From Saccharomycopsis phalli (Eukaryota; Ascomycota; Saccharomycetes; Ascoideales; Saccharomycopsidaceae): a DNA stretch of 64,000 bases. Positions 43,301-63,530 of this stretch are shown here, piece by piece (the first letter of the stretch is position 1; each line of letters starts with the position of its first letter). A model generated the notes under the pieces. That model was not told where the DNA came from. It saw only the letters and a list, made by a program, of their open reading frames with translations, and did not search any database. The DNA is taken from contig CP073212.1 of NCBI GenBank assembly GCA_020342235.1, positions 2,108,001 through 2,172,000 of the forward strand, in the 5' to 3' direction. Position numbers and translations under genes: made by a program.

Positions 43301-46300
43301 CGTGCCGCCAAATGGTCATGAAGATTTTATTTGCATGTTATGAGGGATTGGATGGAGCAGATGGTGTATTTGAGAATGTGTACGAGGCGATTATCAGTCC
43401 AAGATTGGCCAATTTTGTGGCAGAAAACTCGCAATCTTCATCTTCGTTGTTGAAGCTCTTTGTTCTCTTTTCCAGACAATACCCTTCATTTTTACAAATG
43501 GAAGACTGCAGAATTATTAAATTACTTGTTGAGCTCATCCAGCATGAAAAGACAAAACCGTTTATTATCAACGAGTGTTTGGAAATATTCCATCATAGCT
43601 TATTGGACGACACCATTAGACAGTTGATCAGAACTCCGTTGTTGGACAAGTTAGTTGAGTTTATCAACTTGAACTCGCGGGATATCATTGTTAACTGTAT
43701 TAACATTCTCTTGATTCTCATAGAGAAGGACTATGATGTTAAGTATCTTGAATTGATAACCAACGTCCTAGACAACAAGTACTACAACTATTTGGATATT
43801 GATATCAAGAACGAATTGGTGCTGGTATTAGTGAGACAAGCACAAAAAACTTCTGTTGATTCCTCTTCAATTTTATACTCCAAGTGGTCAAAAATGTTCA
43901 AAGAATACTCGGATTTGACTTTCCGGAGTCATTTGGTGCTGTTGTTTCTCATAATAAACCCAGAGGTAGGGTTGTTAGTCGAGAATTTGAACAAGTTCAC
44001 TACTTCGAGGCTCAATGAGATTGATTATACTCTGAGAATCGACTCCTTCAAGATTATCAATGACTCTCATGCCACATTCACAGATACTCATTGGTTGCCT
44101 ATTATCTACAATTGTCTTTTCTTTATGAATCACGAGGAGTCTACGCTTCGTTTGAACAGTAGAGAAGTGCTCAACAACTATGTTATTACCCAGCCTACAT
44201 CACAGATTCTCAAGACGGTGCTTCTTCCAGATATCAGGTATGGTCTAAGAAACAGCCAAGATAGAGTCCAGAACGAGTATGTGTTGCTATTGTCTTGTTT
44301 AGTGCACAATTACGCACCTTTACTAGACTTGAAAGTGTTATTAAGTGAGGATGTGGAGCTGGATTTCTTCTATAATATCAACCACATTCAGATCCACAGA
44401 AGACAAAGATGCTTGAGAAGGGTCAGAGACACTATTGAAAAGAGCGAAGAGGCTATTCTGGCACGGAATATCTGCCACTATCTTCTCCCTATGGTTGAGA
44501 AATATATCTATTGCAAAGATGAAGACCATCGGATTCTTACTAATGAGGCAATAACTACGATTGGATACTTGGCTCAGTTCATAGACTATATCCAGTTCCG
44601 ACCAATAAGTCTTCGTTACTTGAGTTATTTGAAGAAGAAAGAGTATTTTAAGGATATGGTGAGATTGATGTATGTTATTGGCGAGGGATTGCGAGACAAG
44701 AGCGAAAATAAGATGGAAGTTGACGAGGATAAGGGTCTTGAAGAGGATAAAGAAGTTGAATCAGACAATAGTGGCGAAGATAAACTGCGGGTGGTACTAC
44801 ATCCACTTGATATTCTCATCAGTGAAACAATTGTACCGACGCTTGACTCCTATTTTACTAGTACCGATGTGGATCTTCGAATTTCTAGAATATCCATTAG
44901 TGAAGCAATTATTGTGTTCATTCTCAACATCCACGATACTCAGAAACAACAGGAACAGGTCAAAGCTTATCTTGTCAAACTTCTCCAGATCTTAAAGAGC
45001 AAGAGTGAGGAAATCAGAGACTTGGTTCGGAAATCTTTAAGTCGGATTCTCGTGTTAGTGTCAAATGAATATTTGTCGTTTGTCGTTCGTGAAATGAAGC
45101 TTATTCTTCGCAAGGGAAGTCATATCCATATTCTCAGTTTTACTGTGAACCATATCCTTGGGAACTTAAAATTAGAACATGGCGATTTGAACGAGTGTGG
45201 GGATACTATTATGGATATTATCATGGAGGATACATTTGGTATGACGGGCTCAGACAAGGACAACGAGAATTACAACAGCAAAGTTAAGGAGATCAAGTTC
45301 AAAAAGAGTTTTGAGACTGTGGAATTACTAGCACAGAACATTAGCTTGGATCACATGGGAATTATCATGAACCCAATTAAGTTGTTGCTTGGTGAATTTC
45401 TCAGCAAAAAGAACGAAAACAAGCTCGACGAGTTGATCAGTAAGATTGTGGTTGGAATCAACCACAACCCTGACAGTCATGATAACCGAGTCATGGTTTT
45501 GTGTTGGGAAATATACCATTTGGATAATGCTACTACTAGAACAAACATCAAAAGGACTATTAAAGATAAACAAAAGTCTGAATCGCAAGAGTATTTCTTG
45601 ATTGAAAAGAAGAAAGTTGAGAAGGTAGACACTTTAACGTCAAAGATATATTTCAAGCGGTTTGCCTTTGAATTGTTGAGAATTGTCATGTCCAATAATT
45701 TAGAACTAGTGACGATATCCAATGTGCATCAGTTTCTTCCTTTGCTAGCGTCAAGTCTTGGTAATGACAAAGAGGAATTGATCATTGTCACCATAAAGTG
45801 TCTTTTGTTTATTATTAAACTTCCTTTTGATGATCCAGGAGACATTGAAGTACTTTCCAAGTGTACGAGCTCGGTGATTAAGTTCATACAAAACAATCTT
45901 CTGATTACGCTGCCGCTTTTCCAGATAAGTCTAAAGTATCTAACCAACGTGCTCAGATACAAGTCAAACTATGAGGAATTCAGTATCAAGCCAACAGTGG
46001 TGAATTATATTCTCGTTAAAGTGATGCCTGAGTTGGATAATGCAGACAGTTTGATCTTTGGGTTCGTTAAAACTGTCATAAACCAGCACATGGTCTTGAC
46101 CAGCATTTATGATATTATGGAGAAGATCTTTAATATTCTGATAACGAACCACAACAAGGATATTCGGAACATGGCACGAACAAACTACTTTCAATTTTTG
46201 ATTGAGTATGACCAGAGTAAAGGAAATTTGGAAAAGCATTTGGCTAAGATTATTAGCAACTTGGAATACCCTGTGGAGTTTGGCCGTTTGAACGTCTTGG

Positions 46301-48166: not shown

Positions 48167-49174
48167 TTAAATCCGAAACTCTGTATCCTTGGCCCATTTG
48201 TTTAATCGTTTCACCAACTCTTCTGATATCAACTTTCCTTTTGCCAACTCTTCTGACGTCAACTTTCCTTTTTCCAACTCTTCTGATGCCAAATTCCCAT
48301 TCACCACCTCACTTTTTGGCGTTTCGCTTTGTATCACCTCCCCACTTGCCATTTCCCCTGCCAATCCCCGTTCATATGCACTACGCAACAATTCCTGCTT
48401 GTTCAACTGGGAAAAGCCGCCGTTATCCAACACCAAAAACGTGTCAACGAGGATCTCCTTGCGATAAAATTCCAACTTTCTCACCATGCTGGCCCTGGTA
48501 AACTTTCCCAAGAACCCCAACAGAAAAAAACTATACAATTTACTCACCTCCTCGTTGGAAAACTCGTGCACTTTCCCCTGGAAATACGGGCCCAAAAGAA
48601 GGGCCACTGAGTCCATTTTTCCTTCACGTACACGATACAGTTTGTTCACCGCTGCTGGAGTCGTACAGGTGGAAGGAATAAGCAGCGGGAACAACATGCA
48701 CACCACTGGAGTGAGCTCTTCAAACACCAAAAGAAGTACCGCAAACAAGGGAAGACGCATGAAATCGCGTTCGGTCCGAAGAACAAGCTGGTACTCGCCT
48801 CTGGAGAGAGTCACGCGCGAGTGCTTGTGCTTCTTTTTGCGAATTTGCAAGAGGTACAACTCATCGTGGAGAAACGACACCAAATCATGAGAAGAAGAGA
48901 TTCTGACCTTTTCATTGACTCCGTCGACGTAGTGGCGATCAAGGATGGACTTTTTTAATTTCTGGTTCGTCCAGACGCTCTTGAGCCCGGACTTGTAGAA
49001 TTGGAGTATGCTTTTCGCAAACGCAAACCATTGCCGCACCCGGAGAAACAGTCCCTGCTTGACGGTAGTAAAAACAACGTGGCGTGGGGATAACGGTGCC
49101 GGTAAAGTTGATACTGGATTGAGCCGGTCGATTTGTGTGCTGAGAAACCGTTTTTGCAACCGAAATAGGTTCAT
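48167..49174 (-). CDS. LETM1-domain mitochondrial inner-membrane protein
   Basis: A 335-residue protein. The start MNLFRLQKRFLSTQ is rich in Arg and hydroxylated residues, as expected of a mitochondrial presequence. Residues about 136-170 hold the LETM1 signature: a basic lead, DFMRLPLFAVLLLVFEE, then a membrane segment ending PLLIPSTC (compare PNMLPSTF in LETM1). The ribosome-binding domain follows, with LGFLGKFTRASMVRKLEFY and a later RLNKW. Yeast relatives Mdm38 and Ylh47 act in mitochondrial K+/H+ homeostasis and translation; this protein is shorter (335 versus about 450-570) and may be a divergent third member. The C-terminal tail contains three 10-residue repeats. It converges with UTP20. 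Confidence 0.75.
   Translation of the reverse strand: MNLFRLQKRFLSTQIDRLNPVSTLPAPLSPRHVVFTTVKQGLFLRVRQWFAFAKSILQFYKSGLKSVWTNQKLKKSILDRHYVDGVNEKVRISSSHDLVSFLHDELYLLQIRKKKHKHSRVTLSRGEYQLVLRTERDFMRLPLFAVLLLVFEELTPVVCMLFPLLIPSTCTTPAAVNKLYRVREGKMDSVALLLGPYFQGKVHEFSNEEVSKLYSFFLLGFLGKFTRASMVRKLEFYRKEILVDTFLVLDNGGFSQLNKQELLRSAYERGLAGEMASGEVIQSETPKSEVVNGNLASEELEKGKLTSEELAKGKLISEELVKRLNKWAKDTEFRI
48214..48303 (-). repeat. Three 30-bp tandem units in the LETM1-domain gene
   Basis: Units at 48214-48243, 48244-48273 and 48274-48303 each begin CCAACTCTTCTGA. They encode GKLxSEELxK-type decapeptides at about residues 291-320. Unit length is a multiple of three, so copy-number change would keep the frame. 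Confidence 0.85.
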
Positions 49175-49871: not shown

Positions 49872-50186
49872 TTAGGCTTGTGCTGATTGAGAAGCTTGAG
49901 CAGCTTGAGCAGCTTGAGCAGCTTGAGCAGATTGCAAATATTGAGCAACTTCAAGTGCCCCAGAAAGACCACTGGTGGCCTTTTTAATATGATCAAGTTT
50001 GATATGGATCCTCTTGTTTTGAACATCATCAGTCTCACCTGAATCTTCAGAGGCATCAGTGGAAACCTCAGGAGCATCAGTAGAAGCTTGGGCAAATGAA
50101 GTTGACAAAGTTGTTTCCTCGCTTATTGGGACAGAAACGGCAGCTAAAGCAATAGAAACAAAGGTGAAGAAAGTTTGAAATTGCAT
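49872..50186 (-). CDS. Small secreted pre-pro-protein, member 1 of a three-gene family
   Basis: A 104-residue protein; the ATG at 50186 is chosen over an in-frame ATG 23 codons upstream because it opens a clean signal peptide (MQFQTFFTFVSIALAAVS, then VPISEETT). An acidic Ser/Thr pro-region follows, ending DDVQNKR, a Kex2-type dibasic site at about residue 59. The presumed mature part begins IHIKLDHIKK and ends in Ala-Gln repeats (AQAAQAAQAAQ). The proteins at 58730 and 62439 have the same plan: [A/V]P[I/V][G/S]ETTT after the signal and DDIQEKK before the mature part. The promoter block at 50237-50260 also matches theirs. Function is unknown; a processed secreted peptide is the inference. Confidence 0.7.
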   Translation of the reverse strand: MQFQTFFTFVSIALAAVSVPISEETTLSTSFAQASTDAPEVSTDASEDSGETDDVQNKRIHIKLDHIKKATSGLSGALEVAQYLQSAQAAQAAQAAQASQSAQA

Positions 50187-50236
50187 TTTATATTTATCTT
50201 GTGATTGTAGTGATGATGATTCATGAAATAGAGTCT

Positions 50237-50260
50237 GCTTATATACCACATCCATCTGAA
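50237..50260 (-). promoter_or_regulatory. Promoter block shared by the secreted family
   Basis: Minus strand: TTCAGATGGA followed, after four bases, by GGTATATAAGC, with the TATA box about 55 bp before the start codon. Nearly the same block precedes the other two family members (58662 and 62371) at the same distance. ATGTCTCAGAAA also occurs further upstream at 50472-50483 and in the upstream regions of the other two genes. Confidence 0.65.
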
Positions 50261-51773
50261 ATCGTTGTGTCTTACTCAGTCGAATTGTCTACGGTAATCC
50301 AAATTTACAAAGCGGTATCGTCGTAATTTACAAATTAACAAAAACAAAAAACGCTTGCTCAAAATATAATATGAATTATATGCTTGATATGGTTCGTTTC
50401 CAATTGTTTCCCATGTCAAATGTCTCACTAAACTACTACCATGTTGAAAAAACTGCATGCATATAATAATCATGTCTCAGAAATGTGTTTGAAGTTTCAA
50501 AATTGAGTAAAAATGTGTCTCAGAGTCGGGAAGTGGTAACAGAATCATTAAAACAAAAAAACCAGCAAGTCTCGATATTTACAACAGTGGACTTAGATTA
50601 TGAAGCATTACTGGGTTTGAAATTCAAGACGTACACAACCTGGTGCTAAAATGTTGCAAAGTCGGTTCTAAAATGCTCAACTGATCTAACGTTTGCAAGA
50701 TTAATAAGAAACTAGAGCTGCACGTTTAAAATGGCAAAATTGTGGTAATATGAATAAGTACTGGAAATTTCCTACTATAAGCGTTCCACGCCTGACTAGA
50801 GAAAATTATTTGTAGTTGCCCATTGTCATTGGTTGAAATCCATTGTAAACTCTATGTTTAGCATAGTTTCCAAGCAAATAGTGCCACCTCCCAACCAAGC
50901 ACGCACGAAAGATTAGGGCCATGCCGCTCAAAGTGAACAGGGATGAACCACGCTCATTCTCACGGAGGGGATTATAGGCCACAAGGCGATCAGTTTAATA
51001 GCACAATTATTCAGTGGAACAAGCCTTATGGATGGCACGTTGCTGAACTATTTGGTAATGACCGAGATGTAAATGATATAGACGAACTCCCTCCATATGA
51101 TCTCCATATGATTCCCATATGATCTCCATATGATTCCCATATGATCTCCATTATAATCTCCATTTTGATTTTGTTATAATCTCCATCCTGAGATCTTAGC
51201 TCATATTCTATCGCGCATTGACGAAATACTAGACACCACTCATGGAATACGTAAATCACTTGAAAAGAGTTTGCCAATCAGTCCATAAATTTGTATAATT
51301 TTACCAGAACGTGTTGGAACATGAGTCCTCCAATATATGATGAAATTCAGCAGTCAAACTCGGCATGCCACCAGGCTTGCAAACCTCAAGTACTGGGAAT
51401 CAGCAACTACTCAAATTGGATTCAATGTTAGACACTGTGAGTTGATGTGGGTTTTCTTTGATTGCTGCTGCCCAGGATTTTCCTGAGTGAAAATATATTC
51501 GTAAAATACCGTATATCCAGGAACAATAGCTAAATATAAAAATAACTATTATTAGTATAATCGACGAACCTATGATATAACGGTTCTAGTATTCCAAGTG
51601 TTGAGTATGCTTTGCAGACATAGCTGGGCTTAGTAAGTGATTGAACCAATACAATATACAACATGTATGCATGATTAGCCTGTCATTATTTTATTATATA
51701 TTCATCGAGGAATTTTTCTTATTAAAACTTGAGACTTCACAGCTTGTGAAAAAAATACCAAACTTGGCATTCA
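50261..51773. other. Intergenic region
   Basis: About 1.5 kb without a convincing gene. It holds upstream motifs of the small secreted-protein gene (ATGTCTCAGAAA at 50472), a short CATATGAT tandem repeat (51091-51160) and a LINE-tail-like piece at 51521-51562 (ATAGCTAAATATAAAAATAA, plus strand). Confidence 0.6.
51091..51160. repeat. Short tandem repeat, CATATGAT-type
   Basis: About three rounds of a 22-bp unit made of alternating CATATGATCTC and CATATGATTCC, decaying into ATAATCTCCATT copies up to about 51185. Confidence 0.75.
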
Positions 51774-51845
51774 CTCCGATACGGGGAATTGAACCCCGAT
51801 CTGCGCTGTGAGAGAGCACCGTGCTAGCCATTACACTATATCGGA
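51774..51845 (-). tRNA. tRNA-Glu (CTC)
   Basis: A 72-bp cloverleaf on the minus strand. The acceptor stem TCCGATA pairs fully with TATCGGA, with discriminator G. The anticodon loop CTCTCAC gives CTC. The T-arm is GGGG-TTCAATT-CCCC, and the D-arm is GTGTAATGGCTAGCAC. It is close to yeast tRNA-Glu and has no intron. On the coding strand the 3' flank soon runs into a T-rich stretch (TTTTTTCACAAG), a fitting Pol III terminator. Confidence 0.96.
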
Positions 51846-52925
51846 TTGTATATTAGAAATTTTAGAAATAAGACTATGGCAGCAGGCAAGAACACGCAAA
51901 TATAAAACTAGCCACCATCAAGTCAATATTGCAGATAGGAGATTTTCAGTAAGATGAAATGATGTAAGTAGCCCGTGTGTACTGAAAAACCTAGATTGAT
52001 TAAAGAGACAGGACAGCAAATACCTCGGAAATCGAAATGACTGGACGATACGTAGCTCAGACACGCAACCAGCATTTAAGGGTCAGAAGGTCCACTAAAT
52101 CGAGGAGCAAATTATAATAATAATATGTTTATTTACTTCAATAGCTATACTAGGCTCCTCCGGAGGGTGAGATTGACCTTTCACTGTTTAAAAAACTAAG
52201 GACGGTGCTGCCAACTTTGGAGTCGAGAAAACTCTTACAATAGAGATGAAAACTTTTAACTTGGTCTAAGAAACTGTTGAAAGAGAAGACTCAGAAGGAG
52301 CTGCGGAGTCTTGCTCCTAGGAGTACCAGCACAACCGCCCTTTTTATGATGGTGTAAAATACAAAGGAATCTGCCCATCCAAAACAAACGTGTAGAATCC
52401 TATGAGATTTGTAAGCTTGACCTTGTCTGAGAAATAGACGCAAGCTCGAGTAGAGTTTGTAATTCCTTTGTGCGTGTAGAATCCTACAAGGGAATAAACT
52501 GGTTTTGCGTCGGTCAAGGAGTATTTGCATGGAAAAGGCAGTGGCAGGGGTTATTAGAATGGAAAACAATTGGCAAATGAAGATAGTACAAGTGAAGGCT
52601 GTAAAAAGGATGGCAAGATGGAAAGGAGAAGATTTCTGAGACGATTATGTAGATGATGATAGATGAATTAGTAAACAAAAGATGATAAATTTCTTTAGTA
52701 AATGGGTAATTAGCAAACAAATGAGGCTATACTTTTTTATCAAATTATTTCGTTGTATAATGATTCTTTATATGATGATTCTTTGCGTATTGTTGGTGTA
52801 TTGGTGCATAGTATATTGTACATTGTACATGGTTTAGTCTATGCATCCCGGCAGACAACCCTGATTCACACCATCGCTCACAACCAGGAAAACATTTTTG
52901 AAAATGCAGCCGGTAGCCATCCACC
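51846..52925. other. Upstream region of SNT2 with an old dispersed repeat
   Basis: About 1.1 kb. The stretch 52110-52510 is mainly an inverted, diverged copy of the repeat at 57416-57815. The last 200 bp is A+T-rich and should contain the SNT2 promoter. No gene was recognised. Confidence 0.6.
52110..52510 (-). repeat. Dispersed repeat family R, inverse copy
   Basis: Read on the minus strand it shares, in order, with 57416-57815: a CACAAxGGAATTAC stretch, CTATTTCTCAGAxAAGG, a TCTACACGTTTG-type segment, GCAGCACCGTCCTTA and GGAGCCTAGTATAGCTA, and then an AAATAAA/ATTATTATAA tail. Similarity is patchy. A tail of this kind suggests an old retroposed (LINE or SINE) unit. Confidence 0.6.
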
Positions 52926-55900
52926 ATGACGCGACCTAGACGACGGGCAGCGCTGAAGGTGACTACGTACAGCGAGCCCGAGCTACATGAGGAGGAGTCC
53001 GGGACGGCAATGGTGCGGCGCGGTGGGTCGTCTGAGCCGGTGAGCGACGCGGACCAGCTGGCGGTGCCAAACAACTGGCAACCGCCGCAAGGGCGGTTTC
53101 CCGAGCTTGCAGTGCTCCAAGGGGCGCGGTTTGAGGACGAGGAGCGGAGCGCGGTGCGGTTTGGTGACGGCACGGTGGTGCGGAAGAACGACCACATAAA
53201 CATGGTGTCTGAGCCGCCGACGGACCCGTACTACATTGCGCGGGTGATGGGTTTTTTCAAGAAGCGGAGTCTCAAGGGCAATGCAAGCGCAAGCAGCGTG
53301 GAGAATTACGAAATCAAGGTGAACTGGTACTACCGGCCGCGGGACATATTGAAGAGCTCAAGCGACTCGCGCTTGCTCTATGCGCTGATGCACACGGACC
53401 TTTGTCCCGTGAGCAGCTTCCGCGGGGCAGTGACGGTGGAACACCGCGACGAGATTGCAGACCTCGTGGCGTACCGGCAGCAGCCGCGGCACTACTGGTT
53501 TGAGAAGTTGTTTGACCGGTACATGATCAAGTACTACGACGTGCTCCCGACGTTCCGGCTCACAAACTTGCCGCACCACTACCAGCAGGCCTTGGCCAAG
53601 CGGTTCAAGTACGTGTTTGTCGAGGCCGGCCGTGGCGACGACCTCCTAGTGACCCCAAAGAGCTGCGGCAAGTGCCGCCAGTGGTGCGCGGTCGCCGACT
53701 CGGTTGAGTGTGCGCAGTGTCGCGACTGGTACCACATGCTCTGCCTTACGCCGCCGTTGGCCAAGAAGCCGTCGCGCGGCTACAGCTGGAGCTGCGCGCG
53801 GTGCTCCAAGGCGGAGGGCCGCGATGAGCCGGGTGACGTTGAGGAGCCGGCGGCGCCCCACGCGGTACCGCATTTTGAGTCGCTTGCGCGCGAGTTTTTG
53901 GAGCGCGATCGGCACGTGACCCAAGCGGAGCGGCGGGCGAGCGAGGAGTGGCATTTGCGGTACCTTGGCATGCACGCGCGGTTGGAGGACGCGCTCGATG
54001 CCGAGGACCGGCCGTACCCACGTGCGTCGTCGCGGATGGGCACGAAGCACCAGGCGGCGGTGGACGAGTGGCACGGGCACCACGAGGTGTACTACGATCC
54101 GCAGGAACCCAAGCCCCGGCGGCGCGGTAAGCGGCGGGTGTTGTCAGGGCGGCATCTTGCGCTTCCCGAGGAGTACCGGGCCGCGCGACCGAGCTGGGTG
54201 AAGCCGCGGCCCGCGGGGTACGTGGAGCGGGGTCTTGACGACGGGAGCTCGAGCACGTTGATGTGGAAGCAGCCCGAGCACGAGGCGAACGAGATCGACT
54301 TCTTTGTGTTCAAGCGGTGCCGGCCGATTGCCAAGGACCTCAAGATCTTCCCAAATACCCCGAACTTTCTCGACGCGATCTTCAAGACGTTGCTTGACTG
54401 CGACTTTGACTACGACCGGGCGTATGGCGAGATCAAGCAGTTTACCCGGCAGCTGCTCAAGGAGCCGACGTTCAGCGACGCAGAGGTGCGCCGGTTCGAG
54501 GACGGCGTGCGCATGTACGGTAGCGAGCTTCTCCCGGTGCACCGCCACGTGAAGACGCAGCGGTTTGCCATGATTGTGCGCTTCTACTACCTCTGGAAGA
54601 AAACCGCGAGCGGCCACGCGATCTGGGACAACTTTGAGGGGCGCAAGAACAAGAAGGTGCGCAAGGCCAAGGCCGCAGACTACGTGGACGCGATTGCCGA
54701 CGCCGACGACGACTCGAGCTACGACTCTGGGCGGCAGCGGCGGCGGTACACGTGCAAGCACTGCCACACCGCATGGCTGACAAAGTGGTTCCGGGCGCCG
54801 GGGCACCGGGTGGCGCCGGCAGATGCCGCGGAGGAGGTGGTGGCGTTGTGCGTGCGGTGCGCGCGTTTGTGGCGCTTGTATGCGGTGGTGTGGGAGGATC
54901 CGCACGAGGTGAGCAGGAAGATTGCGCTCAAGGGTGTGGCGCGGCGCAAGTTGGAGTACGAGTTGGCGCGGGATGCCGAGGAGATTCTCGAGGAAAAGAG
55001 CCGCGGCAAGGGCCGGAAGCGGCTGGGCGAGCCTTTAAAGAAGAAAATCAAGGTCGAGAAGACGGAGGACCGCCGGAGACGCGTCCGAGAAGACAAGCCG
55101 GGGGAAAAGGAAAAGCCAGAGGAAAAAGCCAAGGAAAAAGTCAAGGAAAAGCCGGGGGAAAAGGAAAAGACCAAGGAGAAGACGCGCAACAAGGTGCGCA
55201 TCGAGTCCGAGGTGGTGCTTGGCGAGATCCCGGACCCCGGCCCGCCGGCGAAATCCGAGCCGCTCATCAAGTACCAATACAACCCGCGGTTCTCGTTTGA
55301 CTTTGAAAACTACGACCGGGTCGCCCACGAGTTTGACAACCCATTGCCCGACTCCAAGGACGAGTCGTACCCCGTGCCTGCAAAGTCACGTGATCTCAAC
55401 GTGAGAGGGGGTGTCGGTTTGTTCCCGCCGGACAAGCGCGCGTGCTGCGTGTGCCGGATCCTCAATCCCGACGATCTTGCCGACGTCTTGATATGCTCCA
55501 ACTGCGGCTTGAACGTGCATGGGTCCTGCTACGGCATGGCGAGCCGCGACGCGGCGCAGCACACACGTGAATGGTGCTGCGACTCGTGCCTGAACGACCT
55601 CCACCCGGTTTTGTGCACATACTACGGCTGCTCGTTGTGCTACTCCAAGGAGATTGACCACGACTCGGCCATCACCGGGTCGCTGCTGGCGTACCCCGAC
55701 GCGTTGAAGCGGACCGCGAACTTCAAGTGGGCACACGTGATGTGCTGTCTCGTGAGCCCCGACATCCGGTTCCAGGCCGCGGGCACAATGCAGGGCGCCA
55801 TCAACGTGCCGCTCTCGTTGGTGAAGAACGAGGTCAATTACTGCGACATTTGCAACATCAAGAGCGGCGTGCCGACCACGTGCATGCTCTGCAAACACGC

Positions 55901-56564
55901 GTTCCACGTCACGTGCGCACAGGACTCGCCAGGGTACTTTATCGGGTTCCGCATCTGCGCCGAGTTCGACTACAAGCTGCACAACGTCTATGACGACAAG
56001 CCGCGAATCGTGCGCATCGCCCTGACCGGCTTGGTCGGCGTGCCCAGACCCGTGCTCATATGCTTGGACCATGACCCAGACGAGCGCAGCAAGTACCCAT
56101 TGGTGCTGCTCAGAGAACGCGCAACCTGGCTCGAGCGGCCAGACGCCGAGCCGGAGCCCTTGATCAAGTTGTACGTCGACGGCTTCATGCAGTGGCGCAC
56201 TCCGATCCGCGGTCCGGCATTGCGCTTTCTCGAGGCAAATCTCGTCAAGCAGGAGCTCAAGCGCGCAAAGCTCAAGTCGCGCGTCCTCGACCCAAACAGC
56301 CGGCTCCGCGTGACCCAGCCGCCGGTCTCTGCCGAAGACATGTTGCATGACTCGTATCTTGATGCCTCGGAGCCGTCGAACCAGACTGTGTGTCTGAACT
56401 CGGACGGGTGCGAGTACTGCGGGGTGATTACCCTGGCAAAATGGTGGACTGGCGAGTCGCTGGAGGAGTGTGAGTTTTGCAAGGGCAAGGTGAAGAAGGA
56501 GGGTCATTTCCAGGACTTTGACGATGTCAAGTTGAGCGGGAAGTTGTATGGTTTGAGGGGGTAG
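52926..56564 (+). CDS. SNT2: Snt2-like BAH/PHD/SANT chromatin regulator
   Basis: A 1212-residue protein with the Snt2 layout: BAH domain (about 78-208); first PHD finger (247-293, CGKC...CAQC...H..C...CARC); ELM2/SANT-like region (469-562); a GATA-like Cys-rich finger (609-654, CKHC...CVRC); a Lys/Glu-rich linker with KPGEKEK-type repeats (about 689-756); second PHD (839-889); an extended PHD with long zinc knuckle (897-1019); and a last CEYC...CEFC pair near 1161-1188. In yeast, Snt2 works with Ecm5 and Rpd3 in a histone deacetylase complex that acts in stress-response transcription; the yeast protein is 1403 residues. The ATG sits in the good context CCACCATGA. The gene is far richer in G+C than any neighbour. 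The 3' end of the coding sequence is part of a tandem repeat (56519-56690). Confidence 0.93.
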   Translation: MTRPRRRAALKVTTYSEPELHEEESGTAMVRRGGSSEPVSDADQLAVPNNWQPPQGRFPELAVLQGARFEDEERSAVRFGDGTVVRKNDHINMVSEPPTDPYYIARVMGFFKKRSLKGNASASSVENYEIKVNWYYRPRDILKSSSDSRLLYALMHTDLCPVSSFRGAVTVEHRDEIADLVAYRQQPRHYWFEKLFDRYMIKYYDVLPTFRLTNLPHHYQQALAKRFKYVFVEAGRGDDLLVTPKSCGKCRQWCAVADSVECAQCRDWYHMLCLTPPLAKKPSRGYSWSCARCSKAEGRDEPGDVEEPAAPHAVPHFESLAREFLERDRHVTQAERRASEEWHLRYLGMHARLEDALDAEDRPYPRASSRMGTKHQAAVDEWHGHHEVYYDPQEPKPRRRGKRRVLSGRHLALPEEYRAARPSWVKPRPAGYVERGLDDGSSSTLMWKQPEHEANEIDFFVFKRCRPIAKDLKIFPNTPNFLDAIFKTLLDCDFDYDRAYGEIKQFTRQLLKEPTFSDAEVRRFEDGVRMYGSELLPVHRHVKTQRFAMIVRFYYLWKKTASGHAIWDNFEGRKNKKVRKAKAADYVDAIADADDDSSYDSGRQRRRYTCKHCHTAWLTKWFRAPGHRVAPADAAEEVVALCVRCARLWRLYAVVWEDPHEVSRKIALKGVARRKLEYELARDAEEILEEKSRGKGRKRLGEPLKKKIKVEKTEDRRRRVREDKPGEKEKPEEKAKEKVKEKPGEKEKTKEKTRNKVRIESEVVLGEIPDPGPPAKSEPLIKYQYNPRFSFDFENYDRVAHEFDNPLPDSKDESYPVPAKSRDLNVRGGVGLFPPDKRACCVCRILNPDDLADVLICSNCGLNVHGSCYGMASRDAAQHTREWCCDSCLNDLHPVLCTYYGCSLCYSKEIDHDSAITGSLLAYPDALKRTANFKWAHVMCCLVSPDIRFQAAGTMQGAINVPLSLVKNEVNYCDICNIKSGVPTTCMLCKHAFHVTCAQDSPGYFIGFRICAEFDYKLHNVYDDKPRIVRIALTGLVGVPRPVLICLDHDPDERSKYPLVLLRERATWLERPDAEPEPLIKLYVDGFMQWRTPIRGPALRFLEANLVKQELKRAKLKSRVLDPNSRLRVTQPPVSAEDMLHDSYLDASEPSNQTVCLNSDGCEYCGVITLAKWWTGESLEECEFCKGKVKKEGHFQDFDDVKLSGKLYGLRG

Positions 56565-56690
56565 TGATTTGGCATGACAACGCCAGGCTGAGTGAACTTT
56601 GCATAGCTTGAGGATAGTGGTTTGGCATGACAACGTCAAGTTGAGTAAAAGTCGTATAGCTTGAGAGGGTGCTTGGCCAATGTACATTGG
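56519..56690 (+). repeat. Three 53-56-bp units spanning the SNT2 stop codon
   Basis: The last coding segment (GATGTCAAGTTGAG, then TATGGTTTGAGG) recurs twice after the stop codon, at about 56572 (GACAACGCCAGGCTGAG) and 56625 (GACAACGTCAAGTTGAG), each followed by ATAGCTTGAG. TTTGGCATGACAAC is shared by the second and third units. Confidence 0.8.
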
Positions 56691-57279
56691 TCTAATGTGT
56701 GTATGTAATAATATGTGTAGATTAATAGTTGGAAGTGTGTATGTAGCTGCAATGGCTGCGCAAAGTGGTGAATTGTGTCCATGTTGAATCGTCTTCCAGA
56801 TGGCATTACAACCATTGCTCAGATATTCACTTAATTATAAATCTGTTTTTCTCCTTTGTATTTGAATAATCGAAACGGTAGTGACAAGCAAATTGAATTT
56901 CTTTTCATCTTCGACTACGAAATATCTCTCCTATTAAGAGATTTCACTTTTCCACCCACGTCTTGTCACAACTTCTTTTCAATCATAACCACTTTTAAAT
57001 CGCCAAGCCATCATTCACACGTATCTTAATTCTGTGGCAGCGTAGGAGGTTTGGTCGACTGGAGGACACCTCATGAGGTAGTGGCCGGATTTAAGCCCCA
57101 CCAACCGCACCAACACATAAAAGTCTCGGAAGAGCAATGCTAAAGTCTCGAAAACGAGCAATGAGAAACCCAACGAGTCGTGAACCCATCGTCACAAGAT
57201 TCAGCAGCCTGAATTGCATTAGCCGAGGGAACAACAAGCTTCTCGCATAACCAATGGCCAGTCGCGTTAAACCACCAAC
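56691..57279. other. Intergenic region after SNT2
   Basis: About 590 bp. No gene or RNA gene was recognised. The part from about 57030 may already belong to the 5'-truncated LINE copy that ends at 57401, but I could not align it with confidence. Confidence 0.45.
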
Positions 57280-57401
57280 ACTACTCCCATTAAAGTTTTC
57301 AGCCCATATAACCGTTTAGGGTTATAAAGGGTTTCTTCAACAGAATGCTGCCTCAGAATGCTCCGGAGACAATATATAGCTAAATACAGAAATAAATATA
57401 C
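57280..57401 (+). mobile_element. 5'-truncated LINE copy (3' end only)
   Basis: Shares with the minus-strand LINE fragment at 60344-61640 its 3' untranslated end: GGGTTTCTTCAACAGAATGC and CTGCCTCAGAATG, then GAGACAATATATAGCTAAAT and an A/T-rich tail. It contains no coding sequence. A copy truncated at the 5' end and defined by its 3' end is typical of LINE retroposition. Confidence 0.7.
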
Positions 57402-57415
57402 TTACTTACTACTGG

Positions 57416-57815
57416 ACTTTGGAGCCCAGGCACAGATACACAAGGGAATTACTAATGCCAACCAAGCCCCCATCTATTTCTCAGATAAGGCGAAGCTTAA
57501 AAATCTTATAGAATTCTATTCGTCTGTGCTGGACTAGTAGTTTCCCTTTTTGCTACAGCACGTTAGGAGGGCTACTATGCTAGCACCCTGAGGAGTGGAT
57601 CAAATCACCTAAGACCTAGAAAAAAAGGTAATTGCCTCTCCAATGCTCATTACCTTACATATTTACAAGCTCTAGCCGAAAGTTTATATCTCTGTTGCAG
57701 AGTTTGCTTTCGATGACTACATAGCAGCACCGTCCTTACTCATAGACGGCAAAGTCTAAATCTCCTCTGGGAGCCTAGTATAGCTATAGCCTTAAATAAA
57801 TATTATTATTATAAA
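57416..57815 (+). repeat. Dispersed repeat family R, direct copy
   Basis: Partner of the inverse copy at 52110-52510. It ends in AGCCTAGTATAGCTATAGCC and AAATAAATATTATTATTATA, a tail like those of the LINE copies. No coding capacity is seen. Confidence 0.6.
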
Positions 57816-57846
57816 TACAACCTCACTGATTAAATCTTGGAATTAA

Positions 57847-57895
57847 ATGTGGTCAGCGAGGATCGAACCTCGGCATGTTATCGTTGCAAATTCCA
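57847..57895 (-). other. tRNA-like remnant (T-arm and acceptor strand)
   Basis: The minus strand reads GCCGAGGTTCGATCCTCGC followed by TGACCA. It resembles the T-arm and 3' acceptor strand of a tRNA, but the T-loop is one base short of a perfect stem and no 5' partner (GGTCAGC) follows at the proper distance. A more decayed version lies at 61697-61745 in the duplicate. It is a relic or a tRNA-derived piece, not a working gene. Confidence 0.45.
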
Positions 57896-58403
57896 CCTGC
57901 AGTTTACAAGATTGCTCATTTCCTCAACCCTTGGCACCGAGTCACGTGTTACAGAACATTCTACAACTCCTACAGTTTGTACATGGTAATAATCATTTCA
58001 ATCATCAGTGGACTCGTCCCAGGTACATTTTTACAATTATTGTCTGGGTACATTTATAAATTCTCGTCATGGTACATTGGTAATCTTGTACTAAGGCAAA
58101 GGAAATAATAGCGTGGCTAAGAAACAATAGCCTCTATGAAATAATAACCTGCCTACGAAATAATAACCTGCCTAAGAAATAATAACCTGTCTAAGAAATA
58201 ATAACCTGATTAGGAATAATAACTGGTTGGGTAAGCCTGATTAGGAATGACGACTGGTTGGGTGAACCTGATTAGGAATAACAGTTGAGTAGCAAGAATA
58301 GTCGGCTCACGGAATTAACTAACCATGCACTTCTGACTATGGTAACACTAACCCTTTTGCCATATTATATTCCTACTGTATTGACCTGTGTGAATCTCAA
58401 GCC

Positions 58404-58684
58404 GTTTCTGAGACATGTTCTCCAGGGACATGCACCCTCCATCATGGTAACTCAACATGAGACAGAAATGTCTCAGAAACACATTGTGAACCTACATGCC
58501 AAGCACAATACCAGACAAACACCTCGATGTTGCCAATAGTAAACTGAGTATTTTGCTGCATGTTAGTTAACTGAATTTTATTTCTATGGAACAACCACCC
58601 ATGCATGTTCCATATAGTCATTTGTTACCACAAGTCCGTTGGAACAAGAGGTAGGTGAATATTCAGATGGACTGTAATATAAAA
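58404..58684 (+). promoter_or_regulatory. Upstream control region of secreted family member 2
   Basis: Two features: a perfect 13-bp inverted repeat, GTTTCTGAGACAT (58404-58416) with ATGTCTCAGAAAC (58468-58480); and the family promoter block at 58662-58684, TTCAGATGGA plus a TATA box (ATATAAAA), about 50 bp before the ATG. Both recur at 62112-62188 and 62371-62393. One arm (ATGTCTCAGAAA) and the TATA block also recur upstream of the gene at 49872-50186. Confidence 0.6.
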
Positions 58685-58729
58685 CCAATCTGTTTGCCAT
58701 GAAAACACCACAGTCATATCATCTTAAGC

Positions 58730-59602
58730 ATGCAACTTCACTCTCTTTTTACTCTCGCTTTCCTTACTTCGCTTGCTGCTGCTGTACCAATTGGCGAAAC
58801 CACCACTGTACTTCAGCCTACTGCGATATTTTCTTCTGATGTTACTTCATTCCCTTCTGACTCAGCTGATTCTGATTATGCTTTGCCCGACGATATTCAA
58901 GAAAAGAAGTTCTCCTTCGGACATGGTAGAATCGGTGGTGGAAGAAAGCCAGCTCCAAAGACAGCTCCAAAGCCAGCTCCAAAGACAGCTCCAAAACCAG
59001 CTCCAAAACCAGCTCCAAAACCAGCTTCAAAACCAGCTCCAAAACCAGCTCCAAAATCAGGTGATAAACCCGCAAACAACCCACTGGGAAACGGAGCTGC
59101 CGACGGTCACCAGTCAAATCCACCAGCAAATCCACCAGCAAATCCACCAGCAGCAAATCCACCAGCAGCAAATCCACCAGCAGCAAATCCACCAGCAGCA
59201 AATCCACCAGCAGCAAATCCACCAGCAGCAAATCCACCAGCACCAGAAAGTCCAGAAAAGCCACCAGCAGACTCTCCAAAACCAGAAACACCAACCACAA
59301 GCAAGGTTGGTTTTATGAACTCACTTGCAAGTAGAATTGCTCCTTATGGAACATTTGCGGGTGTTGGAGAGAGTATAATTGACTTCGGCACTGCTGTCGC
59401 TGGTTTAGTACAAGGTCAAACCACTGATTCAGCTCAAGTCACTGATTCAGCTCAAGTCACTGATTCAGCTCAAGTCACTGATTCCGCTCAAGTTACTGAT
59501 ATTGCCGATGCCACTGCTCAAGCTACTGACTCTGCTCAAGTTACTGATATTGCTGATGCCACTGCTCAAACTTCGGAAATCCCACAGCCAACTTCGGCTT
59601 AA
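58730..59602 (+). CDS. Secreted Pro/Ala/Lys repeat protein, family member 2
   Basis: A 290-residue protein, not recognised. Parts: signal peptide (MQLHSLFTLAFLTSLAAA, then VPIGETTT); pro-region rich in Ser, Thr and Asp; DDIQEKK dibasic site at about residues 57-63; a basic Gly-rich start of the mature part (FSFGHGRIGGGRK); about ten APKPAPK/APKTAPK repeats; six AANPP units after two ANPP units; a non-repetitive segment with a hydrophobic helix (IAPYGTFAGVGESIIDFG, about residues 200-217); and a TDSAQV repeat tail. The start was chosen by the signal peptide. An overlapping upstream frame of 46 codons begins 31 bp earlier in another frame. It lies in a segmental duplication with the gene at 62439. 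Secreted or wall-associated location is inferred; no activity can be assigned. Confidence 0.8.
   Translation: MQLHSLFTLAFLTSLAAAVPIGETTTVLQPTAIFSSDVTSFPSDSADSDYALPDDIQEKKFSFGHGRIGGGRKPAPKTAPKPAPKTAPKPAPKPAPKPASKPAPKPAPKSGDKPANNPLGNGAADGHQSNPPANPPANPPAANPPAANPPAANPPAANPPAANPPAANPPAPESPEKPPADSPKPETPTTSKVGFMNSLASRIAPYGTFAGVGESIIDFGTAVAGLVQGQTTDSAQVTDSAQVTDSAQVTDSAQVTDIADATAQATDSAQVTDIADATAQTSEIPQPTSA
59150..59239 (+). repeat. 15-bp tandem array, six units
   Basis: Six units of GCAGCAAATCCACCA coding AANPP. The paralogous gene has nineteen. The units are nearly free of substitutions, so the array has turned over recently. Confidence 0.95.
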
Positions 59603-60343
59603 ATATTGCTGGTCAGTATTACATAAAGTTAGTATAAAAATAGAAATTGTCGTGAAACTGTGTAATCCAGTAGAAAAATATACAGCAATGAACTTTGCTT
59701 ATCCATTATCTGTTCAACAGAGACAATATATAGCTAAATACACAAATAAATATTATTATTACTATGTCTGACTGTAAACCTGACCACGTTCTCATCCCCG
59801 CTGAACTAAAGCATACCGACGGTCCGCTGTAGTATACATGTAATTGTCCCACCATCTTTTTCCCTTGTCAGCCTGATAATAGCTAATTCCCATTTGTAAC
59901 GAAATTTTCAGCGGTTCCAGGCCGTGTGGTTGCAATTGGAGCCGCAAAGTGCCTTAACACATACTTCATTTGCGTAGCCAAGAGATCGTCAATTGTATTC
60001 AGCACAATGTGTGGTTAACCAGGTTAAACAAGCCTATTAAAATTGAGATTGATCACAACGCCCATTTTAAGGTATATTCTCGTCACATCAAGGTAATCGT
60101 CGACTGCAAAGTTAATTACATCTATTTTACCTTTGTTGGACTGGTCTTCCAAGAATAGCGTAGACACCATAAACACCTGCACTTGTGGAGTCACGCTATA
60201 TTACTTGGCACCAGAAAATATAGCAACATTGAACGGGTGGTGACTATAAGGCTCATTGCTCTTTCTAGTTTCGTGATCTGGTTTCAGGTACTGATATTGC
60301 AGCGGTTTCTGAATAATTGATGCGTACCTTTGAATGTCCTCTT
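59603..60343. other. Spacer between the secreted-protein gene and the LINE fragment
   Basis: Contains the 3' flank of the gene (59603-59690, conserved in the duplicate) and a LINE-type tail at 59711-59764. From 59766 onward I recognise nothing; a 62-codon frame at 59970-60158 has no support. Confidence 0.55.
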
Positions 60344-61640
60344 TAACAATAATATTTATTTTTGTATTTAGTTATATATTGTCTCTGGCATTACGGTTAA
60401 TTGACAAATATATCTTCACTCAGGAACATCCTGAGGCAGCATTGCTGTTGAAGAAAACCCGTTGTCAGCCCCTATTCAATTGCTTGGGATTAAAAACTTC
60501 AATGTGTGCGGTTGTATTGTTGATGCTTGGTACTTGGATTGATTGTATATGAAGCCTGGTTACCCTTGTTGACAAGTTTGACCTCTGAATCTCGGCATGT
60601 GTTGGAGAAATCATATTCCAACACGTTCTGGTAGAACTCAATGAGTTTGTGAACTGATTTTTGGTCGGCAAACACTTTTTCAAGCGTATTGCGTATGCCA
60701 TGAGTGGAATCTAATATGTCATCAATGCGCGATAGAATTCGAGCTTCTAAGAGCTCAGGGCATCGGAGGTCATGTATGGTGGAGGGGGAGTGAATCCCGC
60801 ATCTTTTGAACTGAGCGGCATAGCGCTGATTTTGCGTGTGTGTCTGTAGTGGATTGGAAATGAGTCACTAGTAGAGGTGACAATTTCTTGTCACTCTTTG
60901 GTTGCCTGTTTTGAGGCCATTTTCTCAAGCATCTGAACGCGGGATAGTTGTAGTTTCTGTATTGGTGGTAGATATTCTTCGAGTCGGTTTTCCTCTAGTG
61001 AATAATCTTCCCGTTTTTCAAGTATTCAAACGGCTGCATTAAACGTTCTGATATCTGTGGTATGAGTAGCCGTTGCCTTTAACATATTCTGGATAAGAAG
61101 GCGTTTAGGAATTATGATTCTTGTGCTTCCATCGATCGTCGTAGTTTGGAACAAACTTGAGCGGACCGGGATTTGGTGTAATGAATTCATGAACCATCTC
61201 ATGGATTTCATTATTGCCAAGGACTTGAGTAGGATCGTTGGTGGTGGAATACCACTTTCAATGTAGATGATCGTGGTGGACGTGGGCCTAAGGAGGCCTA
61301 GAACCAGTCGTAGAATTGAGTTGAATATCACACTGACCTGTTCACTGGGTTTTTGTCATGTTTTTATAAAACACCCCAAGTCCGTACAATATGATTGGAG
61401 CTGCACACGTTTTGAACAAGATTATCGTGGTGCGCCCGTAGTTCCTCTTGTCATTCTGCCTCAATACCTTGCTCGCTCGGCAGTACGGCACATCTTAGAC
61501 AATGTTTGCTTTAGATGGCTTCTGAAGCTGAGTCTTGAATCAAGGGTAATGCCTAATAACTTGACCTCGTTTGTTTTCTCCTTCCGCCCTCCTTCCGGTA
61601 GTTGGAGGAATATTAATCGTATATGCTTCATGACTCAATA
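60344..61640 (-). mobile_element. Decayed LINE retrotransposon, 3' part
   Basis: On the minus strand, 61510-61570 codes for VKLLGITLDSRLSFRSHL, the well-known stretch after the catalytic part of non-LTR reverse transcriptases. The segment 61026-61331 codes for ILRLVLGLLRPTSTTIIYIE and SGIPPP, matching the region that follows it in I/Jockey/Tad-type LINEs. Several stops and frame changes show it is a pseudogene. The 3' end at 60344-60390 is GAGACAATATATAACTAAAT followed by AAATAAATATTATTGTTA, the tail also found at 57365, 59711 and 63799. The 5' part (catalytic reverse transcriptase, endonuclease) is absent. The clade assignment is tentative. Confidence 0.78.
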
Positions 61641-62111
61641 TTAATAGCACGTGCTTCATGGTTAATACAATCTTGGTGATTAAATCTTGGAGTTAAATAT
61701 GGTCACCAGCGAGGATCGAACATCGACATGTTATCGTTGCAAATTCCGCCTACAGTTTACAAGGTTGCTCATTTCCTTGACCCGTGGCACTGAGTCACAG
61801 ACCATTCTACAATTCCTACAATTTGTGCATGGTAATAATCATTTCAATCATCAATAGACTCGTCCCAGACATATTTTTTTGATTCTCATCCGGGCATGTT
61901 TATGGATTCTCGTCATGGTTCATGGGTAATATTATTGTACTAAGGCAAAGGAAATAATTGCCTGGTTGGATGAACCTGATTAGGAATAACAGTTGAGTAG
62001 CAAGAATAGTCGGCTCACGGAATTAATTAACCATGCACTTCTGACTATGGTAACACTAACCCTTTTGCCATATTATATTCCTACTGTATTGACCTGTATG
62101 AATCTCAAGCC

Positions 62112-62393
62112 GTTTCTGAGACATGTTCTCCAGGGACATGCACCCTCCATCATGGTAACTCAACATGAGACAGAAATGTCTCAGAAACACATTGTGAACC
62201 TACATGCCAAGCACAATACCAGAAAAAACACCTCAATGTTGCCAATAGTAAACCGAGTGTATTGCTGCATGTTAGCTAACTGGATATTATTTCCATGGAG
62301 CAACCACCCATGCATGTTCCATATAGTCATTTGTTACCACAAGCCCGTTGAAACAAGAGGTAGAGGAATATTCAGACGGACTGTAATATAAAA
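62112..62393 (+). promoter_or_regulatory. Upstream control region of secreted family member 3
   Basis: GTTTCTGAGACAT (62112-62124) and ATGTCTCAGAAAC (62176-62188) form a perfect inverted repeat. The promoter block TTCAGACGGA with ATATAAAA follows at 62371-62393, about 50 bp before the start codon. Confidence 0.6.
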
Positions 62394-62438
62394 ACAATCT
62401 GTTTGTCATGAAAGCACCACAATCAAATCATCTTAAGG

Positions 62439-63530
62439 ATGCAACCTCACACTCTTTTTACTCTCGTTTTTCTTACTTCGCTTGCTGCGGCTGCACCAGT
62501 TGGCGAAACCACCACTGTACTTCAGCCTACTGCGATATTTTCTTCTGATGTTACTTCTTTGCCTTCTGATTCGGTTGATTCTGATTATGCTTTGCCCGAC
62601 GATATTCAAGAAAAGAAGTTCTCCTTCGGACGAAGTGGTAAAAAGGGTGGTTCAAACAAACCAGCTAAAAAGAAAGGTGGGAAGAAAGGTGGAAATTCAG
62701 CTCCAAAATCAGCTCCAAAACCAGCTCCAAAACCAGCTCCAAAGCCAGCTCCAAAGCCAGCTCCAAAGCCAGCTCCAAAACCAGCTCCAAAGCCAGCTCC
62801 AAAACCAGCTCCAAACTCAGGTGATAAACCCGCAAACAACCCACTGGGAAACGGAGCTGCCGACGGTCACCAGTCAAATCCAGCAGCTAATCCACCAGCA
62901 GCTAATCCACCAGCAGCAAATCCACCAGCAGCAAATCCACCAGCAGCAAATCCACCAGCAGCAAATCCACCAGCAGCAAATCCACCAGCAGCAAATCCAC
63001 CAGCAGCAAATCCACCAGCAGCAAATCCACCAGCAGCAAATCCACCAGCAGCAAATCCACCAGCAGCAAATCCACCAGCAGCAAATCCACCAGCAGCAAA
63101 TCCACCAGCAGCAAATCCACCAGCAGCAAATCCACCAGCAGCAAATCCACCAGCAGCAAATCCACCAGCACCAGCAAGTCCAGAAAAGCCACCAGCAGAC
63201 TCTCCAAAACCAGAAACACCAACCACAACCAAGGCTGGTCTTATGGATTCACTTGCAAGTAGATTTGGTCCTTATGGACTGGTTGCGGCCGATGCAGGAC
63301 ATATAATTGGCTTAGGCACTCAGATCTATGGTATTATAACTGGCCAAGCTACTGATTCAGCTCAAGCTACTGATTCAGCTCAAGCTACTGATTCAGCTCA
63401 AGTTACTGATTCCGCCCAAGCTACTGATATTGCCGATGCCACTGCTCAAGCTACTGACTCTGCTCAAGTTACTGATATTGCTGATGCCACTGCTCAAACT
63501 TCGGAAATCCCACAGCCAACTTCGGCGTAA
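62439..63530 (+). CDS. Secreted Pro/Ala/Lys repeat protein, family member 3
   Basis: A 363-residue paralogue of the protein at 58730. Parts: signal peptide (MQPHTLFTLVFLTSLAAA, then APVGETTT); acidic pro-region ending DDIQEKK (about residue 63); a strongly basic start of the mature part (FSFGRSGKKGGSNKPAKKKG); about ten APKPAPKP units; nineteen AANPP units; a hydrophobic segment with FGPYGLVAADAGHIIGLGTQ (about residues 277-296) that differs clearly from its paralogue; then TDSAQA/TDSAQV repeats and the common end TSEIPQPTSA. Signal, pro-region and C-terminal end are conserved, whereas the segment before the tail is divergent, which suggests either relaxed or diversifying change there. Function is unknown. 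Confidence 0.8.
   Translation: MQPHTLFTLVFLTSLAAAAPVGETTTVLQPTAIFSSDVTSLPSDSVDSDYALPDDIQEKKFSFGRSGKKGGSNKPAKKKGGKKGGNSAPKSAPKPAPKPAPKPAPKPAPKPAPKPAPKPAPKPAPNSGDKPANNPLGNGAADGHQSNPAANPPAANPPAANPPAANPPAANPPAANPPAANPPAANPPAANPPAANPPAANPPAANPPAANPPAANPPAANPPAANPPAANPPAANPPAANPPAPASPEKPPADSPKPETPTTTKAGLMDSLASRFGPYGLVAADAGHIIGLGTQIYGIITGQATDSAQATDSAQATDSAQVTDSAQATDIADATAQATDSAQVTDIADATAQTSEIPQPTSA
62883..63167 (+). repeat. 15-bp tandem array, nineteen units
   Basis: Nineteen units of GCAGC(A/T)AATCCACCA; the first two carry GCT in place of GCA and the others are essentially identical. The array codes (AANPP)19 and keeps several other frames open on both strands because the unit is a multiple of three and contains no stop. 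Confidence 0.95.

What the first reader, a model, noticed from the sequence alone, without database searches (positions are those of the whole stretch)
49872..63530. A three-gene family of secreted pre-pro-proteins sharing signal, pro-region, dibasic site and promoter
Seen directly: proteins at 49872-50186 (minus), 58730-59602 and 62439-63530 (plus) all start with a signal peptide followed by [A/V]P[I/V][G/S]ETTT, then an acidic Ser/Thr-rich stretch, then DD[I/V]Q[E/N]K[K/R], then a basic mature start, and end in Ala-Gln-rich repeats. Established: Kex2 cleaves after KR and, less well, KK in yeast pro-proteins. Inference: this is a family of processed secreted proteins whose mature parts have diverged in length from about 45 to 300 residues. 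I recognise no known family.
Basis: partly seen in the sequence, partly recalled or inferred. Interest (0 to 1): 0.75.

Follow-up and report, generated by a model that had tools for sequence, protein, structure and literature searches.

The report
Yeast family of hypervariable secreted peptides
A yeast genome carries dozens of copies of one small, probably secreted protein gene whose switch and delivery tag stay alike while the delivered peptide keeps changing, a pattern otherwise known from venoms and plant defence peptides.

Summary
The three proteins are real and belong to a much larger family: 35 loci of the same 14.1-Mb yeast genome were extracted, plus up to four relic traces. 25 of 35 have a leader followed by a mature part. 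Their leaders form one family (273 of 300 pairs at E<=0.01); their mature parts fall into 11 groups (33 of 300 pairs). In 21 chosen pairs the mature DNA is less alike than the leader in 21, and than the 300-bp promoter in 17. In one young pair the mature part has about 14.5 nonsynonymous and 0.5 synonymous differences between nearly identical flanks. 20 of 35 promoters hold two or more TGAGACA boxes. The dibasic site is not general: only 2 of 21 junctions read KR, 12 KK. Best reading: co-regulated, diversifying pre-pro-peptides, probably antimicrobial or killer-type; the function is inferred. Pfam (10 members) and NCBIfam (7) do not know leader or mature part. No other fungal genome could be searched, so spread and true novelty stay open.

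The parts
49872..50186 (-). member 1, 104-aa pre-pro-protein
   Evidence: ORF (start at 50186 by family alignment)
50010..50186 (-). leader of member 1: signal, acidic pro-region (net charge -8), junction DDVQNKR
49875..50009 (-). mature part of member 1 (IHIKLDHIKK..., 45 aa); matches none of the other 24 mature parts compared
50420..50479 (-). two TGAGACAT boxes in the promoter of member 1 (window 50420 and 50472 as ATGTCTCA)
58730..59602 (+). member 2, 290 aa, proline-rich subgroup
58730..58909 (+). leader of member 2 ending DDIQEKK
58910..59599 (+). mature part of member 2: basic start, PAPK and NPPAA repeats, stretch modelled as helices at low confidence, TDSAQ-type tail
58409..58475 (+). 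facing TGAGACAT / ATGTCTCA boxes of member 2
58678..58683 (+). TATAAA at -52 of member 2
62439..63530 (+). member 3, 363 aa, proline-rich subgroup
62439..62618 (+). leader of member 3 ending DDIQEKK
62619..63527 (+). mature part of member 3
62117..62183 (+). facing TGAGACAT / ATGTCTCA boxes of member 3
62387..62392 (+). TATAAA at -52 of member 3

Best explanation
Shown by sequence: a yeast multigene family spread over seven of eight contigs, built as a short cassette (promoter, in most members with TGAGACA boxes and a TATA word; signal-like start; acidic Ser/Thr-rich pro-region; [DE][DN][VIA]QxK junction in 21; a variable mature segment; a shared 3'-UTR word in 14 of 35). The mature segment is less conserved than the leader in every pair compared and than the promoter in most; in one young pair it changed almost only by amino-acid-changing substitutions. 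Inferred: the protein enters the secretory pathway, the acidic pro-piece keeps a mostly basic, partly amphipathic mature peptide harmless, a protease cuts after the shared Lys (Kex2 where KR is present; a yapsin-like or relaxed Kex2-like enzyme elsewhere), and the released peptides act against competing microbes (antimicrobial or killer-type arsenal), which would explain the diversification, the co-regulation and the broken copies.
For: Family size. Leaders 273 of 300 pairs related against mature parts 33 of 300, in 11 groups. Of 21 chosen pairs, mature DNA less alike than leader in 21 and than promoter in 17; first 90 mature bases 0.44-0.62 in nine of ten pairs with random 0.40-0.48. C2:302/C2:324 pair: 3/300 differences upstream, 6/288 in leader, 15/111 in mature, about 14.5 nonsynonymous to 0.5 synonymous, dN/dS 8.8, scattered, and about 44 bases after the stop identical. 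TGAGACA is the most often repeated 7-mer: two or more copies in 20 of 35 promoters, 0.07 expected from single-base shuffles. TGAGACATGCCTA: 9 of 10 exact genome sites upstream of members. 3' word: 10 of 10 genome hits at members, reversed control 0. Pro-region acidic in 21 of 21; mature first 30 residues net positive in 16 of 21.
Against: No activity or expression datum. Of the 16 net positive mature starts 7 are only +1; 4 are neutral and 1 negative; amphipathicity beats shuffles at p<0.05 in only 5 of 21. AlphaFold models are low-confidence (mean pLDDT 48-50). dN against dS in the key pair is borderline by itself (Fisher p 0.037 with 0 synonymous changes, 0.18 with 1), and its 6 leader differences are nonsynonymous too. 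Mature DNA is less alike than the 200-bp 3' flank in only 11 of 21 pairs, and not less than the promoter in 4 of 21. Close pairs C7:1063/C7:1039 and C7:1039/C6:464 have mature dN/dS 0.31 and 0.61, three older pairs 0.62-0.73 with high dS, and in the CYC subgroup the leader too exceeds 1 in 5 of 6 pairs. Six Pro-rich members look more like structural or cell-wall proteins.
Confidence: 0.5

Rival explanations
1. Relaxed constraint or decay: only the leader is functional or recently copied; the mature part drifts, and gene conversion keeps promoters and leaders alike.
For: Ten of 35 loci are truncated, stopped or lack the junction; conversion could homogenise leader and promoter, since the copied unit of one pair ends abruptly near -300; mature dS is also raised in older pairs, and two close pairs have mature dN/dS below 1.
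Against: In the C2 pair the mature part carries 15/111 differences, nearly all amino-acid-changing, between 3/300 upstream and about 44 identical bases after the stop; drift would give synonymous changes too, though N against S alone is borderline. Open frames are kept in members whose mature DNA is near random identity.
Confidence: 0.2
2. Surface or matrix proteins: secreted wall or biofilm components, the Pro-rich members as extensin-like linkers and the short ones as accessory peptides.
For: Pro-rich repeats with a sub-cut-off Extensin_1 match in 62439 (E 1.2e-13, 51.6 bits against a 105-bit cut-off); repeat-rich C7:1366; Ser/Thr-rich stretches.
Against: Low-complexity matches say little about homology; most of the short members show no repeats by eye; hypervariability behind an acidic pro-piece is not typical of wall proteins (general knowledge).
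Confidence: 0.15
3. Pheromone-like or signalling peptides: the leader resembles that of alpha-factor precursors and diversification reflects recognition of self.
For: Sub-threshold MF_alpha_N match of one member (10.6 bits, E 0.56, residues 1-31); TGAGACA differs by one base from the pheromone response element TGAAACA (recalled).
Against: No PF05436 or PF04648 hit in the genome, but neither control shows that the search would find a yeast gene; 25 precursors with mostly different products and, in most, one junction only.
Confidence: 0.1
4. Cytolysins or effectors aimed at an animal, plant or insect host rather than at microbes.
For: Short products behind a processed pro-region; fungi have both kinds of effector (PMC8528282 passages; PMC8787473 abstract).
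Confidence: 0.1

Closest known systems
Citrus SCAmpP genes (small cyclic amphipathic peptides; PMC4409773, passages read)
   Same: Large gene family with conserved promoter (two members) and leader, a hypervariable product segment, a pseudogene, and positive selection or hypermutation proposed
   Different: Plant; one intron; 5-10-residue cyclic products; not compared by sequence
Kex2-processed repeat proteins, KEPs (PMC7329392 and PMC6339444, passages read)
   Same: Fungal secreted precursors with dibasic processing
   Different: KEPs hold several repeated cores cut at every site; here 21 of 25 members fail the fragment rule
Kex2-processed pro-domain effectors (PMC8528282, passages read)
   Same: Signal, N-terminal pro-domain, single cut, secreted product
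   Different: Sought by KR, RR or LxxR; here Arg at the junction in 2 of 21
K1-like killer toxin family KKT of budding yeasts (PMC7888664, passages read)
   Same: Lineage-specific expansion of secreted toxin genes with many pseudogenes
   Different: KKT genes are mostly subtelomeric and mainly under purifying selection; here the 35 loci lie 83 kb or more from contig ends and products are mostly short and variable; no sequence comparison was made
Candidalysin / Ece1 (PMC8787473, abstract read)
   Same: Small peptide released from a yeast secretory precursor; there helical and amphipathic, here suggested for some members only
   Different: Orthologues in three species are described, not a multigene family in one genome; not compared by sequence

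Membership tests
KEP (Kex2-processed repeat protein) | at least four fragments after in-silico cutting at KR/RR (or, failing that, at KK), rule of PMC6339444 | tested here: not met
   0 of 25 pass with KR/RR; 4 of 25 (all Pro-rich, including window 62439) pass by the KK fallback; 21 of 25 fail
Kex2-processed pro-domain protein | canonical KR/RR at the pro-mature junction | tested here: not met
   KR at the junction in 2 of 21 (49872 and C3:2040); KK 12, K+S/G 6, KH 1. The expanded LxxR rule was not scanned
Alpha mating factor precursor | MF_alpha_N (PF05436) leader | tested here: inconclusive
   no hit in the genome but the control rang nowhere; 1 of 10 members listed, at 10.6 bits against a 22-bit cut-off
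Alpha mating factor precursor | MF_alpha (PF04648) peptide repeats | tested here: inconclusive
   0 hits at E<=10 in the genome; 13-position model, control hits only in two bacteria, none over the cut-off
Any Pfam or NCBIfam family | match over curated cut-off to leader or mature part | tested here: not met
   Pfam on 10 members and NCBIfam on 7: the only match over cut-off is DUF963, on the low-complexity pro-repeat of two members; Extensin_1, New_glue, Cementoin, DUF6802, MF_alpha_N and two NCBIfam models stay below cut-off. The other 25 loci were not scanned
K1-like KKT killer toxins | sequence similarity to K1L | not tested
Candidalysin / Ece1 | sequence similarity to Ece1 | not tested
Diversifying secreted peptide family (by working, not descent) | mature part diverging faster than leader and flanks | tested here: met
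   less alike than leader in 21 of 21 chosen pairs, than promoter in 17, than 3' flank in 11

The most novel reading that the evidence does not exclude
A budding yeast runs a venom-like system: one promoter-leader cassette copied around the genome, whose mature segment is diversified by strong positive selection (or a mutation process aimed at it), giving a co-regulated arsenal of about eleven unrelated secreted peptide types against rivals.
Probability: 0.35. Interest if true: 0.85.

Novelty: new variant of a known kind. Interest (0 to 1): 0.68.

Why it matters
Hypervariable secreted peptides behind a fixed leader are known from animal venoms and frog skin (recalled) and citrus (PMC4409773). 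A yeast example would bring that evolution into an organism that may be amenable to genetics, would add a source of small antimicrobial candidates, and would allow a direct test of whether the diversity comes from selection or from a targeted mutation process.

Tried and rejected
Tried without result: the literature was searched for the family's own peptide words (0 papers) and for descriptions of such a yeast family (listings; nine papers opened in outline or passages, of which PMC12715866 gave nothing used); none of what I saw describes this family. Alpha-factor origin is not supported but not excluded. Solved-structure searches with two members gave nothing better than E 0.3. AlphaFold models are too poor to search with, so no fold search was run. 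Subtelomeric expansion is not supported: the nearest of the 35 loci is about 83 kb from a contig end. Ten loci with TGAGACAT-type words were read: among ATG-started frames of 25 aa or more, one (C7:1379) starts like the leader; one (C4:1250) resembles the C2 relics downstream, by eye; I saw no family leader at the other eight. Most of the other TCTGAGACATG sites were not read. CUG decoding was only glanced at (UTP20 alignment; PRP8 CTG sites) and is not settled.

Rows dropped before counts: the 25 are those of 35 loci with a junction motif or the HKKK/HRKK stretch; the 21 are those matching a junction pattern that I wrote, so [VIA]QxK is shared by construction. The pairs (21; 13 plus the 6 of one subgroup; 10) were chosen by me; identities there count aligned columns only. 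In one search the amphipathy test used the C-terminal stretch for the six Pro-rich members. The 35 include C2:477, whose frame after the leader looks shifted against its relatives. Shuffles keep base counts only, and the promoters are related by descent, so box counts are not independent.
Full report
WHAT IS THERE. The window is G000:C1:2108001-2172000 of an unnamed yeast assembly of 14,148,124 bases in 8 contigs. Neighbours include a UTP20 gene (40357-47508), a LETM1-domain gene (48167-49174) and a BAH/PHD gene (52926-56564). The three proteins of the finding are confirmed, with the start of the minus-strand gene at 50186 by family alignment.

FAMILY SIZE. Protein searches of the genome (only the best candidates are scored, so lower bounds) give hits on seven of the eight contigs. 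I extracted 35 loci with a recognisable leader start. 25 have a leader followed by a mature part. The other ten are truncated, stopped, lack an ATG, or lack the junction motif. Up to four more traces lie at C2:213, C2:220, C7:1379 and, without a leader, C4:1250. The consensus of 16 leaders is MQFQTLFTIxSIALAAxAAPIGExTTLxTSxxQ...DDVQxKK.

CONSERVED OUTSIDE, VARIABLE INSIDE. All-against-all phmmer of the 25: leaders 273 of 300 pairs at E<=0.01 in one component; mature parts 33 of 300 pairs in 11 components, and the mature part of window 49872 matches none. In 21 chosen pairs, mature DNA is less alike than the leader in 21, than the 300-bp promoter in 17 and than the 200-bp 3' flank in 11 (counted from the table). 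The four against on the promoter are C7:1063/C6:464, C7:1039/C4:209, C3:1502/C3:1928 and C6:365/C7:1082. Within the Pro-rich subgroup mature parts stay 70-95% identical (same call). With shuffled controls, for ten pairs: 49872 against C3:2040 has promoter 0.72 and 0.73, signal 0.78, pro 0.71, first 90 mature bases 0.44 (random 0.46). C1:850 against C6:464 has promoter 0.88 and 0.89, signal 1.00, pro 0.93, mature 0.54 (random 0.43), 3' flank 0.82. In nine of the ten pairs the first 90 mature bases are 0.44-0.62; the tenth, C2:302/C2:324, is 0.85. The last 60 mature bases keep more (0.48-0.70 in the nine). In the two pairs of C4:209 the region -400 to -201 is at random (0.42, 0.44), so its upstream homology is shorter. 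49872 against 58730 shows weak promoter similarity (0.48-0.54).

A YOUNG PAIR. C2:302 and C2:324 differ at 3 of 300 upstream bases, 6 of 288 leader bases (all six nonsynonymous) and 15 of 111 mature bases, with about 14.5 nonsynonymous and 0.5 synonymous (dN/dS 8.8). Mature nonsynonymous against upstream: Fisher p 1.3e-7; mature against leader bases: p 2.4e-5. N against S within the mature part alone is borderline (p 0.037 with 0 synonymous, 0.18 with 1). The differences are scattered; about 44 bases after the stop are identical, homology fades about 85 bp after the stop, and upstream it ends near -300. So the copied unit is short, and the change sits mainly in the mature segment. Other close pairs (C7:1063/C7:1039; C7:1039/C6:464) have mature dN/dS of 0.31 and 0.61; older pairs of that subgroup have 0.62-1.05 with high dS; the subgroup with HTHVH..KKK shows values above 1 in the leader in 5 of 6 pairs and in the mature part in 4 of 6, with dN larger in the mature part in 5 of 6. 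Diversification is thus neither constant nor strictly confined.

PROMOTER AND 3' END. TGAGACA is the 7-mer most often present twice or more per promoter: 20 of 35 (0.07 expected from single-base shuffles), 52 copies in all (1.8 expected), at least one in 28. TGAGACAT occurs in 27 of 35 upstream regions (one of the eight without it, C1:848, had only 293 bp available). TGAGACATGCCTA occurs exactly 10 times in the genome, 9 of them upstream of members; with one mismatch allowed 31 sites against 6 for the reversed control. TCTGAGACATG occurs 35 times against 14 for the reversed control, 11 of the 35 upstream of members or a relic (compared with coordinates). The promoters are related by descent, so such counts are not independent events. 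In Penicillium chrysogenum the bZIP factor RsmA binds TGAGACA in vitro, at one of two sites tested (PMC8977021, passages; its A. nidulans relative is closest to yeast Yap3); that is a lead for the regulator, not a test. A 3'-UTR word is found within two mismatches at 10 genome sites, all at members (control 0). Allowing four mismatches it follows the stop in 14 of 35, not in the three of the window.

PROCESSING. In the 21 members matching my junction pattern the residue after QxK is K in 12, R in 2, S or G in 6, H in 1. Four other members have HKKK or HRKK stretches instead. Kex2 takes almost exclusively Arg at P1, with an aliphatic P4 preferred (PMC8528282, passages). Yapsins may cover for missing Kex2 processing (PMC2515848, passages). 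A cut after the constant Lys, which leaves V, I or A at P4, is my inference.

PRODUCTS. The pro-region is acidic in 21 of 21 (-3 to -10). The first 30 mature residues are net positive in 16 of 21 (7 of them only +1), neutral in 4 and negative in 1. A helical hydrophobic moment beats shuffles at p<0.05 in 5 of 21. AlphaFold draws one long helix over the junction and mature part of C2:324, but at low confidence (mean pLDDT 49.6); window 58730 has three short C-terminal helices, also low (48.3). One four-member group carries HTHVH..KKK, and three of the four also CYC.

KNOWN OR NEW. Pfam (10 members), NCBIfam (7) and solved structures (2) give no family beyond low-complexity or sub-cut-off matches. 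KEP rule: 0 of 25 by KR/RR, 4 of 25 by KK. The nearest in working are the citrus SCAmpPs, with a shared promoter and hypervariable product (PMC4409773, passages).

VERDICT. Family, cassette structure and hypervariability are shown. Secretion and processing are suggested by sequence only. An antimicrobial or killer role is the most likely of several and unproven.

Noticed in passing
window 5002-34020: A cluster of full and partial Ty1/copia-like element reading frames (named by eye) in both orientations, several near-identical; could mark a repeat-rich region such as a centromere.
   Followed up: no
window 52926-56564: A BAH/PHD gene (SNT2-like, name recalled) lies in a GC island (62% at 54-56 kb) in a window otherwise mostly 35-47% GC.
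   Followed up: no
L065 and L066 (C2:224 and C2:263): Two nearly identical relic copies of a family member on opposite strands about 39 kb apart, probably an inverted segmental copy.
   Followed up: partly
L059, L060, L062, L012:294 (C1:1004, C5:1255, C4:363, C1:848): Subgroup with HTHVH..KKK, in three of four followed by CYC; dN/dS above 1 in the leader in 5 of 6 pairs and in the mature part in 4 of 6.
   Followed up: partly
L079 (C1:932250-933050): Three TGAGACAT boxes close together without a family leader among the frames listed; perhaps another gene of the same regulon.
   Followed up: no
L015 (C7:1366): A member without the junction motif that carries long Ser/Thr/Lys-rich repeats after the leader (278 aa).
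   Followed up: no
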